A program made the position numbers and the translations under genes. The notes beneath the pieces are model-generated. The model searched no databases, had not been told where the DNA came from, and was given only the letters and a program-made list of their open reading frames with translations. A stretch of DNA of 64,000 bases from Aminomonas paucivorans DSM 12260 (GTDB taxonomy: Bacteria; Synergistota; Synergistia; Synergistales; Synergistaceae): positions 1,955,812 to 2,019,811 of the forward strand of contig NZ_CM001022.1 of assembly GCF_000165795.1 (NCBI RefSeq). Direction: 5' to 3'. Positions 44,065 through 60,598 of the stretch are shown here, in pieces; position 1 is the stretch's first letter; every line of letters starts with the position of its first letter.

Positions 44065-44298
44065 ATGCAGACCAAGCTGACCTTGCGGCTGGAGGAGGAC
44101 CTGATCCGTCGGGCCAAACGGGCTTCCGCCCGCACCGGCAAGTCGGTCTCCCAGATGGTGGGGGATTTCTTTCGGACCCTGGAGCAGGACCCGGCGCAGG
44201 AGGAGCTGTCCCCCAGGGTGAAGGCCCTGCTGGGGGTTCTTCCTCCCTCGGTCTGCGAAGAGGACTGGAGAGCCCATCTGGAGGAAAAACACCAGTGA
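44065..44298 (+). CDS. DUF6364-like antitoxin
   Basis: 77 residues. The N-terminus (MQTKLTLRLEEDLIRRAKRA, then SARTGKSVSQMVGDFF) has the ribbon-helix-helix-like pattern of antitoxins paired with PIN toxins. The C-terminal part (SPRVKALLGVLPPSVCEEDW) is the presumed toxin-binding segment. The start at 44065 follows a GGGGGGATGA purine stretch. It overlaps the toxin gene by 4 bases. Autorepression through the GTATA inverted repeat is likely. Confidence 0.85.
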   Translation: MQTKLTLRLEEDLIRRAKRASARTGKSVSQMVGDFFRTLEQDPAQEELSPRVKALLGVLPPSVCEEDWRAHLEEKHQ

Positions 44299-58238: not shown

Positions 58239-58916
58239 ATGCCGCAGAAGAGTCTCAACGCGGAGGAGCGGGCCTATCGCTCCATCATCAAGCTGATCCT
58301 CTCGGGGTTCTACCGCCCCGGGGATTTTCTCCTGGAGGTGGAACTGGCGGAACGCCTCCAGATGAGCCGGACCCCCGTGAGCCGAGCCCTGGCCCGGCTG
58401 GTGGTGGAGGGCTTTCTGGACAAGATGCCCAAGAAGGGGTGCTTCATCCCCGTCCCCACCCCGGAGGACGCGGCGCAGGTCTTCCGCGCCCGCATCGCCG
58501 TGGAGAGCGAGGCGGCGGCCGGAGCCGCCCGGCTCGCCACGGAGGAGGAGATCCGCCATCTGGAGGACCTGGTGGCCCAGGACGAAGAGGCGGTACGCAC
58601 CCTGGCCAAGGAGTCCTTCTCCGCCATCAACGAGGCATTGCACCTGGGCATCGCCCGGGCGTCCCGCAACGCCTACCTGGAGCGCTGGTGCCGCTACATC
58701 TTCTGGCGGTCCAATCTCTACGTCTTCTACCTGGACAGCTTCTACCGATCCGTGGAACGCAGCCAGGTGCCCCCCCAGAAGACCCCGGCACAACACCGGA
58801 CCCTGGTCCAGGCCATCCGGGAGCACGACCCGGAGGAAGCGGCCCGGCTCATGCGGGTCCACATCGAACGCAGCTACGAGGTCCTCCTCTTCCGCCCCGA
58901 AGACCCCAGACCCTAG
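58239..58916 (+). CDS. FCD-type GntR transcriptional regulator
   Basis: 225 residues. The N-terminal winged helix (AYRSIIKLILSGFYRPGDFL; LAERLQMSRTPVSRALARLVVEGFL) is followed by an FCD domain with metal-site candidates in INEALHLGIARASRN (about residues 129-143) and MRVHIERSYE near the C-terminus. It is directly upstream of an amino-acid dehydrogenase/racemase operon and separated from it by a terminator. The promoter of that operon contains two copies of a TGATG-N4-CATCA-like site, a plausible operator for this protein. Effector unknown, possibly an amino acid or its keto derivative. Confidence 0.9.
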   Translation: MPQKSLNAEERAYRSIIKLILSGFYRPGDFLLEVELAERLQMSRTPVSRALARLVVEGFLDKMPKKGCFIPVPTPEDAAQVFRARIAVESEAAAGAARLATEEEIRHLEDLVAQDEEAVRTLAKESFSAINEALHLGIARASRNAYLERWCRYIFWRSNLYVFYLDSFYRSVERSQVPPQKTPAQHRTLVQAIREHDPEEAARLMRVHIERSYEVLLFRPEDPRP

Positions 58917-58931
58917 ACTCGCCCCTAACAG

Positions 58932-58967
58932 AGGGCCCCGTATCTCTCCGGGGCCCTTTCGTTTTTT
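58932..58967 (+). terminator. Terminator of the GntR gene
   Basis: AGGGCCCCG (58932-58940) pairs with CGGGGCCCT (58949-58957), followed by TTCG and six T. Confidence 0.88.
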
Positions 58968-58978
58968 CTTTCTCCAAG

Positions 58979-59008
58979 TTGACCCGCTTCCCCCGTCGTG
59001 GGTAAAAT
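58979..59008 (+). promoter_or_regulatory. Promoter of the dehydrogenase/racemase operon
   Basis: TTGACC (58979-58984), 18-base spacer, TAAAAT (59003-59008). Transcription would start about 100 bases before the first gene. Confidence 0.65.
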
Positions 59009-59023
59009 CAGACAAGTGATCAT

Positions 59024-59037
59024 TGATGGATACATTA
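59024..59037. promoter_or_regulatory. Operator-like repeat, copy 1
   Basis: TGATGGATACATTA, an imperfect TGATG-N4-CATCA palindrome just after the predicted transcription start. It shares TGGATACAT with copy 2 at 59073-59086. Confidence 0.55.
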
Positions 59038-59064
59038 CCCCGTCCCGGACGGGGTTCTTCTTTT
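59038..59064 (+). terminator. Terminator-like hairpin in the operon leader
   Basis: CCCCGTC (59038-59044) and GACGGGG (59048-59054) form a 7-bp stem followed by TTCTTCTTTT. It is downstream of the promoter and before the first gene, the layout of an attenuator. Confidence 0.6.
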
Positions 59065-59072
59065 CTCTCTAG

Positions 59073-59086
59073 ATATGGATACATCA
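59073..59086. promoter_or_regulatory. Operator-like repeat, copy 2
   Basis: ATATGGATACATCA, the other imperfect half of the same TGATG-N4-CATCA-like motif, located between the hairpin and the first gene. Confidence 0.55.
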
Positions 59087-59111
59087 ATCCACCCACAAGG
59101 GAGTGACGGGC

Positions 59112-59813
59112 ATGGCGGGAAAGCAGGTTCTTCTTCTCGGCCTGGGAAAGCAGGGACGGGCAGCCCTCTGGGATCTCTCGCGGGACCCGAGCATCGAGAC
59201 CCTTCGGATATGCGACCCTTCCCCGGAAACCGCCGAGGTGGCCTCTCGCTACGGCGGGGGAAAGGAGACGATCCTTCCCCTCTCCGCAGAGGACCCGAAG
59301 GGTCTTCTGCGGGAGATGGAACGGGCGGACGGGGTCCTGGAGACTCTCCCGGGGCGGTTGGCCCTCCCCGTGGCCCGTCTGGCCGCCCGGGCAGGGGTCC
59401 CCACGGTCAGCACCATGTACCTGGCCGATCCGGGGGAGCGGGACCCGCAGCGGCGTCTGGCCCAGCAGGAGGAGCTGATCGCCCTGGACGAGGAAGCCCG
59501 GCGGACCGGGGCCATTCTGCTCCCGGAGTGCGGCATGGACCCGGGGCTGGACCTGGTGCTCTGCAAGGAGGCCCTTCGGGGGTTCGAGACGGTGGAGTCC
59601 CTGGTCTCCTACGGGGCGGGGTTTCCCGAGGCCGCCGCGGCGGACAACCCCCTGGGCTATCGGTTCACCTGGTCCATCCCGGGGGTGATGCGCTCCTACC
59701 TGCGTCCCGCCCTGGTGATCCGGGGAGGGAAAGCCTGCCCCATCCCGGCGGAGGCGGTCTTCGCCCCGGAAAACACCAGACCCCGGCACGAGGAGGAGGA
59801 CAAACGGCCATGA
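59112..59813 (+). CDS. Short saccharopine-dehydrogenase-like protein (C-terminal domain missing)
   Basis: 233 residues. The Rossmann region (VLLLGLGKQGRAALWDLSRD) and the first part of the catalytic domain (ILLPECGMDPGLDLVLCKEAL; DNPLGYRFTWSIPGVMRSYLRPAL) align well with the full-length relative at 60595. The protein stops soon after GGKACPIPAEAVF, about 200 residues short of the usual length. The last 15 residues are charged and unlike the family. It is intact as a frame, with a good start (AAGGGAG) and a 4-base overlap with the next gene, so it may be a natural short form rather than debris. It could act as a partner of the long protein. Confidence 0.75.
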   Translation: MAGKQVLLLGLGKQGRAALWDLSRDPSIETLRICDPSPETAEVASRYGGGKETILPLSAEDPKGLLREMERADGVLETLPGRLALPVARLAARAGVPTVSTMYLADPGERDPQRRLAQQEELIALDEEARRTGAILLPECGMDPGLDLVLCKEALRGFETVESLVSYGAGFPEAAAADNPLGYRFTWSIPGVMRSYLRPALVIRGGKACPIPAEAVFAPENTRPRHEEEDKRP

Positions 59814-60598
59814 GTAACCTCGCACCATCTGAACTGCGACCCCTAGCACACATCGGGGTCCTCTGCTGGGAGGCGGGCAAGGTGCCCCGGGGGCTGGTGC
59901 AGCTGGAAGCCCTGCGGGGGAACAGCACCAACCCCCTCACCTATCCCTTCCCCGTGGCGTTCCGGCGGGTGGAGGGGGCCTGCTGGGACACCATCCTGGA
60001 GCACCCGGACCCGGAGGTGCACCGAAGGATGGTGGAGGCGGGGCGGGAACTGGTGGCCTCCGGGATCCGGGGGGTGACCACCAGCTGCGGCTTCAACATC
60101 CTGCTTCAACAAAGGCTGGCGGAGGCTCTGGGGGTGCCGGTCTTCACCTCCAGCCTCCTCCAGGTCCCCTGGGTGGCCCGTCTTCTGGGCCCCCGGGCCC
60201 GGATCGGCGTCCTCACCGCCAAGGAGGACGCCCTGACGGAGGAACACCTGCGCTGCGCCGGCATCGACCCGGCGTCGACCCACATCCGGGGCCTCGACGC
60301 CTGCCCCCAGTGGAGCCGGATCTTCCGTTTCCCGGAGGAGCCGGTGGATCTGGAGGCGATCCGAAAGGAGGTGGTGAACACCGCCCTCGACGCCCTCAAG
60401 ACCGCCCCGGACATAGGCGCCTTCGTCCTGGAGTGCACCGACCTGCCCCCCTTCGCGGAGGCGATCCGACGCGCCACGGGAAGGCCGGTCTTCGACTTCG
60501 TCACCCTGGTGGGATGGGTCCATTCCGCCTTGGGCATCCAAACCCCCGATCCGGTGGGGGGAACACGTACATTCGGCCATGGGAGGCATGGATCATGA
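59810..60598 (+). CDS. Asp/Glu racemase-superfamily protein
   Basis: 262 residues. The pair of catalytic cysteines expected for cofactor-independent racemases is present at Cys93 (GVTTSCGFNILLQ) and Cys209 (FVLECTDLPPF). The remaining sequence resembles aspartate/glutamate/hydantoin racemase-like proteins rather than MurI. The likely reaction is amino-acid or hydantoin epimerisation, or a decarboxylase-type variant. Placed between two dehydrogenase-like genes with 4-base overlaps on both sides, it probably feeds the correct stereoisomer to them (inference). Confidence 0.82.
   Translation: MSNLAPSELRPLAHIGVLCWEAGKVPRGLVQLEALRGNSTNPLTYPFPVAFRRVEGACWDTILEHPDPEVHRRMVEAGRELVASGIRGVTTSCGFNILLQQRLAEALGVPVFTSSLLQVPWVARLLGPRARIGVLTAKEDALTEEHLRCAGIDPASTHIRGLDACPQWSRIFRFPEEPVDLEAIRKEVVNTALDALKTAPDIGAFVLECTDLPPFAEAIRRATGRPVFDFVTLVGWVHSALGIQTPDPVGGTRTFGHGRHGS

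What the first reader, a model, noticed from the sequence alone, without database searches (positions are those of the whole stretch)
58979..59111. Leader with two operator-like repeats bracketing a terminator hairpin
After the TTGACC/TAAAAT promoter come TGATGGATACATTA, a terminator hairpin with a T-rich tail, and ATATGGATACATCA before the gene. The shared TGGATACAT and opposite imperfect halves suggest a dimeric regulator binding on both sides of an attenuator, possibly the GntR protein encoded just upstream. Combined DNA-binding and attenuation control would be unusual.
Basis: partly seen in the sequence, partly recalled or inferred. Interest (0 to 1): 0.6.

Follow-up and report, generated by a model that had tools for sequence, protein, structure and literature searches.

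The report
Two repressor sites around a terminator
The start of this operon carries two copies of a landing site for the repressor encoded next door, one on each side of a short transcription stop signal; the same layout recurs in three distant bacterial lineages and suggests a double lock, which is a neat variation on known control schemes and has not been tested.

Summary
After a sigma-70-like promoter (58979-59008) come ATGGATACAT (core 59026-59035), an intrinsic-terminator-like hairpin (59038-59054) with a T-rich tail, and a second ATGGATACAT (59075-59084), before a saccharopine-dehydrogenase-like gene. The core ATGNATNCAT is almost certainly the operator of the FCD/GntR protein encoded just upstream. 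Exact sites are about 116-fold enriched upstream of gntR and the target gene in related genomes. A solved relative, Atu1419, binds ATGTATACAT, and most of its base-reading residues are kept here. The paired-site leader is unique in its genome. Operator-hairpin-operator recurs in two other families (G038, G037/G056) with unrelated hairpin sequences but nearly the same distance (20, 21, 21 nt) from stem to second operator. That supports a selected layout. Amino-acid attenuation is not supported: no Rfam match, only about 22 nt before the hairpin, no conserved leader peptide or antiterminator. My best explanation is a double-locked promoter: repressor at O1 hinders initiation, and repressor at O2 blocks polymerase over the terminator's U-tract, favouring release. 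The operators are strongly supported; the roadblock-terminator coupling is inference. Repression plus attenuation is textbook (E. coli trp), so this is a new variant of a known kind.

The parts
58239..58916 (+). gntR: FCD-type GntR regulator, 225 aa, proposed binder of both sites
   Evidence: Pfam FCD E 2e-23 and GntR E 6e-13; aligns to Atu1419 (PDB 6z74) E 2e-8 with Glu33, Arg44, Thr45 kept and Arg49 replaced by Ser48
58930..58959 (+). terminator of gntR, upstream of the leader promoter
   Evidence: 11-pair stem and T-run
58979..59008 (+). promoter TTGACC-18-TAAAAT; start site expected near 59015 (inferred)
   Evidence: 10 of 12 consensus matches
59024..59037 (+). operator O1, TGATGGATACATTA, core 59026-59035 (about +12 to +21)
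   Evidence: motif ATGNATNCAT conserved in relatives
59038..59054 (+). terminator-like hairpin, 7-bp stem and 3-nt loop
   Evidence: analogous hairpins in G038 and G037
59055..59069 (+). T-rich tail TTCTTCTTTTCTCTC between hairpin and O2
   Evidence: sequence
59073..59086 (+). operator O2, ATATGGATACATCA, core 59075-59084; 20 nt between stem end and core
   Evidence: spacing 21 nt in G038 and G037
59097..59103 (+). Shine-Dalgarno-like AAGGGAG
   Evidence: sequence
59112..59813 (+). first target gene, saccharopine-dehydrogenase-like (SDH1), 233 aa; orthologues have about 413 aa
   Evidence: Pfam Sacchrp_dh_NADP and Sacchrp_dh_C; alignment A1
59810..60598 (+). Asp/Glu racemase-family gene, overlaps SDH1 stop by ATGA
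   Evidence: Pfam Asp_Glu_race, NCBIfam PRK07475
60595..61914 (+). second saccharopine-dehydrogenase-like gene (SDH2), probably same operon
   Evidence: open frame; orthologues near SDH1 and gntR in relatives

Best explanation
This is a doubly locked repressible leader. The FCD/GntR repressor encoded by the upstream gene binds two ATGNATNCAT operators in the transcribed leader of the SDH1-racemase-SDH2 operon. At O1 (about +12 to +21) it hinders initiation and promoter escape. Any polymerase that gets past makes the terminator hairpin just as its front meets repressor on O2, whose core begins 21 nt past the stem. The roadblock holds polymerase over the U-rich tract and favours release. When the repressor's ligand (unknown, probably an amino-acid-type substrate of the operon) releases it, both locks open and enough polymerase reads through the short-stemmed terminator. 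Shown by comparison: both operators, their link to this GntR clade, and recurrence of operator-hairpin-operator in three lineages. Inferred: repression rather than activation, the roadblock effect on termination, and the ligand. The confidence given is for the operators plus a genuine terminator with O2 taking part in control; for the specific roadblock-terminator coupling alone it is about 0.3.
For: Exact sites: 34 in 6,892 bp upstream of gntR or SDH1 against 11 in 258,808 bp elsewhere in the same loci, about 116-fold. Six of those 11 are themselves leader sites just outside the tested intervals (G038 pair; G014; transporter promoters of three spirochaete MAGs). Atu1419 binds ATGTATACAT and needs G3/C8; both window sites keep them and the protein keeps the Arg that reads G3. 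Promoter-O1-hairpin+T-tract-O2-gene is also found in G038 and G037/G056, on three separate branches of the GntR tree. Hairpin sequences differ (CCCCGTC/GACGGGG, CCCGC/GCGGG, CCGCC/GGCGG), so the shared feature is an RNA hairpin, not a DNA site. Stem end to O2 core is 20, 21 and 21 nt; chance of agreement within 1 nt is about 0.013 if hairpins were placed at random. No second promoter is seen between hairpin and gene. Precedents: repressor roadblocks such as PurR, GalR, CcpA and CodY (PMC10310618); YtgR binding promotes termination of upstream transcripts (PMC6504234); Pol I terminates by hairpin, T-rich stretch and a roadblock 15 bp downstream (PMC12366685).
Against: No experiment. Only three independent cases; most relatives have one site, or sites about 12 bp apart, with no hairpin. 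The nearest sequence in the GntR tree, G016, has no exact site in its locus and carries gntR at the end of the operon. The G037 hairpin scores poorly as a terminator (-28) and the scan finds no consensus promoter there. The stand-off between bacterial polymerase and a GntR roadblock is not known here; with 15-18 bp the polymerase would stop slightly before the usual release point. PMC12366685 reports that LexA as roadblock did not support hairpin termination at a distance requiring backtracking.
Confidence: 0.5

Rival explanations
1. Two plain operators for one repressor (cooperative binding or simple double occlusion), with the hairpin acting as an unregulated partial terminator or leak reducer that does not interact with the repressor.
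For: Multiple operators are common in this clade, most without a hairpin. The window hairpin is a moderate terminator with a broken U-tract.
Against: The hairpin sits at nearly the same distance from O2 in three lineages. A constitutive terminator in one's own leader wastes the promoter unless read-through is controlled.
Confidence: 0.33
2. The repressor is a tetramer that bridges O1 and O2 in a small DNA loop over the start region, as proposed for Atu1419; the hairpin merely lies in the loop.
For: Atu1419 is a tetramer that binds the same 10-mer twice and is proposed to loop (PMC7797058).
Against: Sites 49-52 bp apart (4.7 to 5 turns) would need a very tight loop; the Atu1419 sites are 109-190 bp apart. 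Relatives favour about 12-bp spacing, which cannot loop. It does not explain the hairpin.
Confidence: 0.08
3. Classical attenuation: the leader RNA senses an amino acid, tRNA or metabolite and switches the hairpin on or off, independently of the repressor.
For: A terminator-like hairpin lies between promoter and start codon.
Against: No Rfam family; about 22 nt between start site and hairpin leaves no room for a sensor; no competing antiterminator fold of the leader up to 59069; the possible short ORF from 59026 has no Shine-Dalgarno, no obvious control codons and is not conserved; its ATG is part of the operator.
Confidence: 0.04
4. The hairpin is a chance inverted repeat or a 5'-UTR mRNA-stabilising stem, not a terminator.
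For: Whole-leader folding is not unusual (z -0.25); the G037 hairpin scores poorly.
Against: T-rich tails follow all three hairpins, and chance presence in such a short interval is about 0.2%.
Confidence: 0.05

Closest known systems
Atu1419 and the VanR group of FCD GntR regulators
   Same: Same protein family, same type of 10-bp site (ATGTATACAT against ATGGATACAT), two sites per regulated region, most key base-reading residues kept
   Different: Atu1419 sites lie at promoter elements 109-190 bp apart, without a terminator between reported; effector and oligomeric state of the window protein are unknown
Repressor roadblocks (PurR, GalR, CcpA, CodY, LacI)
   Same: Operator inside the transcribed leader, able to stop elongating polymerase
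   Different: Here an intrinsic-terminator-like hairpin sits directly upstream of the downstream operator
YtgR control of Chlamydia trpRBA
   Same: One repressor both represses a promoter and promotes ending of upstream transcripts at its operator
   Different: YtgR has an operator between genes and was proposed to act without specific RNA structure
E. coli trp operon (TrpR operator plus attenuator)
   Same: Repression of initiation and premature termination in one leader
   Different: trp attenuation senses translation of a leader peptide; no operator follows the terminator
RNA polymerase I terminator (hairpin, T-rich element, Reb1/Nsi1/TTF1 roadblock)
   Same: Same order of parts: hairpin, T-rich stretch, protein site shortly downstream
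   Different: Eukaryotic, unregulated, end of gene; the hairpin there lies farther from the RNA end and needs backtracking

Membership tests
FCD (VanR-group) GntR regulator with an ATGTATACAT-type operator | N-terminal GntR winged helix and C-terminal FCD domain | tested here: met
   Pfam PF00392 and PF07729 above cut-off
FCD (VanR-group) GntR regulator with an ATGTATACAT-type operator | DNA-contacting residues Glu34, Arg45, Thr46, Arg49 of Atu1419 | tested here: inconclusive
   Glu33, Arg44 and Thr45 kept; Arg49 position is Ser48, with Arg49 next to it (alignment)
FCD (VanR-group) GntR regulator with an ATGTATACAT-type operator | Linked operators ATGNATNCAT with G3 and C8 | tested here: met
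FCD (VanR-group) GntR regulator with an ATGTATACAT-type operator | Actual binding, ligand and tetrameric state | not testable with these tools
   Needs biochemistry
Classical transcription attenuator (leader peptide, riboswitch, T-box) | Intrinsic terminator between promoter and gene | tested here: met
Classical transcription attenuator (leader peptide, riboswitch, T-box) | Sensor RNA and competing antiterminator | tested here: not met
   No Rfam match; no competing fold; about 22 nt upstream of the hairpin
Classical transcription attenuator (leader peptide, riboswitch, T-box) | Conserved leader peptide with control codons | tested here: not met
   Short frame differs between G000 and G038 and has no Shine-Dalgarno
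Repressor roadblock | Operator downstream of the transcription start | tested here: met
   Predicted from promoter and site positions; start site itself not mapped
Repressor roadblock | Bound repressor stops elongating polymerase | not testable with these tools
   Needs in-vitro transcription or 3'-end mapping

The most novel reading that the evidence does not exclude
A bacterial repressor-gated intrinsic terminator: DNA-bound GntR at O2 converts a weak hairpin terminator into an efficient one by parking polymerase on its U-tract, so one protein controls initiation (O1) and termination (O2) with no RNA-binding or RNA-sensing part. It would be a small bacterial counterpart of hairpin-plus-roadblock termination by RNA polymerase I.
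Probability: 0.28. Interest if true: 0.62.

Novelty: new variant of a known kind. Interest (0 to 1): 0.42.

Why it matters
If the coupling is real, attenuation can be run by an ordinary DNA-binding repressor simply by putting an operator about 20 nt after a weak terminator. That is easy to evolve, and it would be missed by searches that look only for RNA sensors. It also makes a general question testable: do roadblocks and hairpins act together on bacterial polymerase as they do on polymerase I? At the least, the work assigns an operator motif and target genes to an FCD GntR clade in Synergistota and some other bacteria.

Tried and rejected
Rfam scan: nothing. Leader peptide: the frame from 59026 is not conserved and lacks a Shine-Dalgarno. 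RNA antiterminator made by pairing of the two repeats: the repeats are near-palindromes, so they can pair as RNA, but O2 is transcribed after the terminator decision and the whole-leader fold is unremarkable. Terminator then operator in G040 and G031 (18 nt apart) first looked like more cases, but there the operator core lies in the 17-nt spacer of a TTGGCA/TTGACC...TAAAAA-like promoter that starts at the end of the gntR terminator's T-run (read), so these were dropped as ordinary. Other genomic copies of the motif in G000 lie in or near unrelated genes with no second exact site and look like chance. Paired-site searches over 188 Synergistota genomes at spacing 52 and 49 added no leader beyond G038, G037, G056 and G000. 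The hairpin as a DNA operator of another regulator: rejected, because its sequence is not conserved between lineages.

Full report
What is there. The leader at 58979-59111 was read directly. TTGACC-18-TAAAAT (58979-59008) is the only promoter-like site in 58900-59150. Expected start is near 59015. The two repeats share the 10-mer ATGGATACAT (59026-59035 and 59075-59084). Between them is CCCCGTC-CCG-GACGGGG (59038-59054) followed by a T-rich tail. A Shine-Dalgarno-like AAGGGAG (59097-59103) precedes ATG 59112 of a saccharopine-dehydrogenase-like gene, here SDH1. An Asp/Glu racemase-family gene and a second saccharopine-dehydrogenase-like gene (SDH2) follow, each overlapping the one before by four bases. 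Upstream lies an FCD-type GntR regulator with its own terminator.

Chance. The 8 fixed bases ATGNATNCAT occur 7 times in the 2.63-Mb genome, two of them here. The other five are in or near unrelated genes and single. A pair at 49 bp occurs once in this genome. Terminator-like hairpins with T-rich tails number 11 in both strands of the 64-kb window, so one in this short interval has a chance of roughly 0.2%.

Who binds. GntR orthologues at 55-68% identity were found in 19 of 188 Synergistota genomes, the window's own included, mostly next to or near an SDH1 orthologue, and in spirochaete MAGs and Bacterium UASB270. In 26 loci, exact sites within 150 bp upstream of gntR or SDH1 number 34 in 6,892 bp, against 11 in 258,808 bp elsewhere, about 116-fold. 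Six of those 11 are themselves leader sites just outside the tested intervals: the G038 pair, one downstream of gntR in G014, and the promoters of transporter-like genes next to gntR in three spirochaete MAGs. An independent anchor is Atu1419 of Agrobacterium fabrum, an FCD (VanR-group) regulator crystallised on ATGTATACAT, for which G3 and C8 are essential and G3 is read by Arg45 (PMC7797058). The window protein aligns to it (PDB 6z74, E 2e-8) and keeps Glu33, Arg44 and Thr45; the Arg49 position is Ser48. That 6z74 is Atu1419 rests on the agreement of its residue numbering and my own knowledge, not on a title shown by the tool. I take the assignment of both repeats to the upstream GntR as strongly supported, though not shown by binding.

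Operator layout in relatives. Most relatives have a single site or sites about 12 bp apart at the promoter. Three lineages instead have promoter, O1, hairpin with T-tract, O2, gene: the window, G038 (L026, reverse strand of 200-390) and G037 with its near-twin G056 (L023 10600-10850; L034, L035). Core-to-core distances are 49, 52 and 52 bp. In G037 and G056 the O1 core is one base off (ATGAACACAT). Hairpins are unrelated in sequence. The distance from stem end to O2 core is 20, 21 and 21 nt. On the GntR tree these three fall on separate branches, so the layout arose more than once or was kept from an ancestor and lost often; either way it is more than a local accident. If hairpins had been placed at random between the sites, agreement of the three spacings within 1 nt would have probability about 0.013. 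This is modest evidence, not proof.

Mechanism. The hairpin begins about 22 nt after the expected start, so there is no room for a riboswitch or T-box; Rfam finds none, and no leader peptide is conserved. The remaining way to make a terminator in one's own leader useful is to let a protein change read-through. O2 begins just past the T-rich tail. If a bacterial polymerase stops about 14 bp before a DNA-bound protein (a figure for EcoRI roadblocks recalled from memory, not checked here), its RNA 3' end would lie 7-8 nt past the stem in all three leaders, close to the distance of about 8 nt for bacterial intrinsic termination quoted in PMC12366685. A larger stand-off would put it a few nucleotides short. 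Bound repressor could thus strengthen a weak terminator; ligand-released repressor would open both locks. Repressors that block elongation are well known (PMC10310618). In Chlamydia, YtgR promotes termination of upstream transcripts at its operator (PMC6504234). Polymerase I ends transcription by hairpin, T-rich stretch and a roadblock 15 bp on (PMC12366685). The same paper cautions that LexA did not support efficient hairpin termination when backtracking was needed.

Limits. The G037 hairpin is a poor terminator by score and its promoter is below the consensus threshold. The nearest GntR in the tree (G016) lacks exact sites in its locus. In G038 no separate gntR terminator was found upstream of the promoter, so there the leader hairpin could also serve to end gntR transcripts. 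Nothing was measured.

Verdict. Observation confirmed; interpretation partly supported; new variant of a known kind, with a testable and more novel reading (roadblock-gated terminator) that the evidence does not exclude.

Noticed in passing
59112-59813: SDH1 in the window is only 233 aa; orthologues have about 413 aa. The C-terminal 180 or so residues are missing and the frame ends by ATGA overlap with the racemase gene, so it may be a decaying or remodelled gene.
   Followed up: partly
L060 about 2240-2320, and downstream of gntR in L061 and L064: In spirochaete MAGs the same operator sits at the centre of a roughly 40-bp super-palindrome (for example TTTATACATACTTTGATGTATACATTGAAGTATGTATAAA) upstream of a transporter-like gene, suggesting an array of several sites.
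   Followed up: partly
L023 6850-6895 (G037) and L137 about 1445-1490 (G056): The gntR leader itself holds operators in a long inverted repeat, GCGTAGAATGGATGCATCCATCAGGGATGCATCCATTCTACGC, which would also form a strong RNA hairpin.
   Followed up: no
L024 5000-8600 (G016): The closest GntR in the tree lies at the end of the operon (racemase-SDH2-SDH1-gntR) and its locus has no exact operator; control of gntR seems rewired.
   Followed up: partly
window 44148-44237: ARAGORN reports a tRNA-like gene with a four-base anticodon (ggag), 90 nt; probably a Ser-type tRNA with an odd loop call, or a false call.
   Followed up: no
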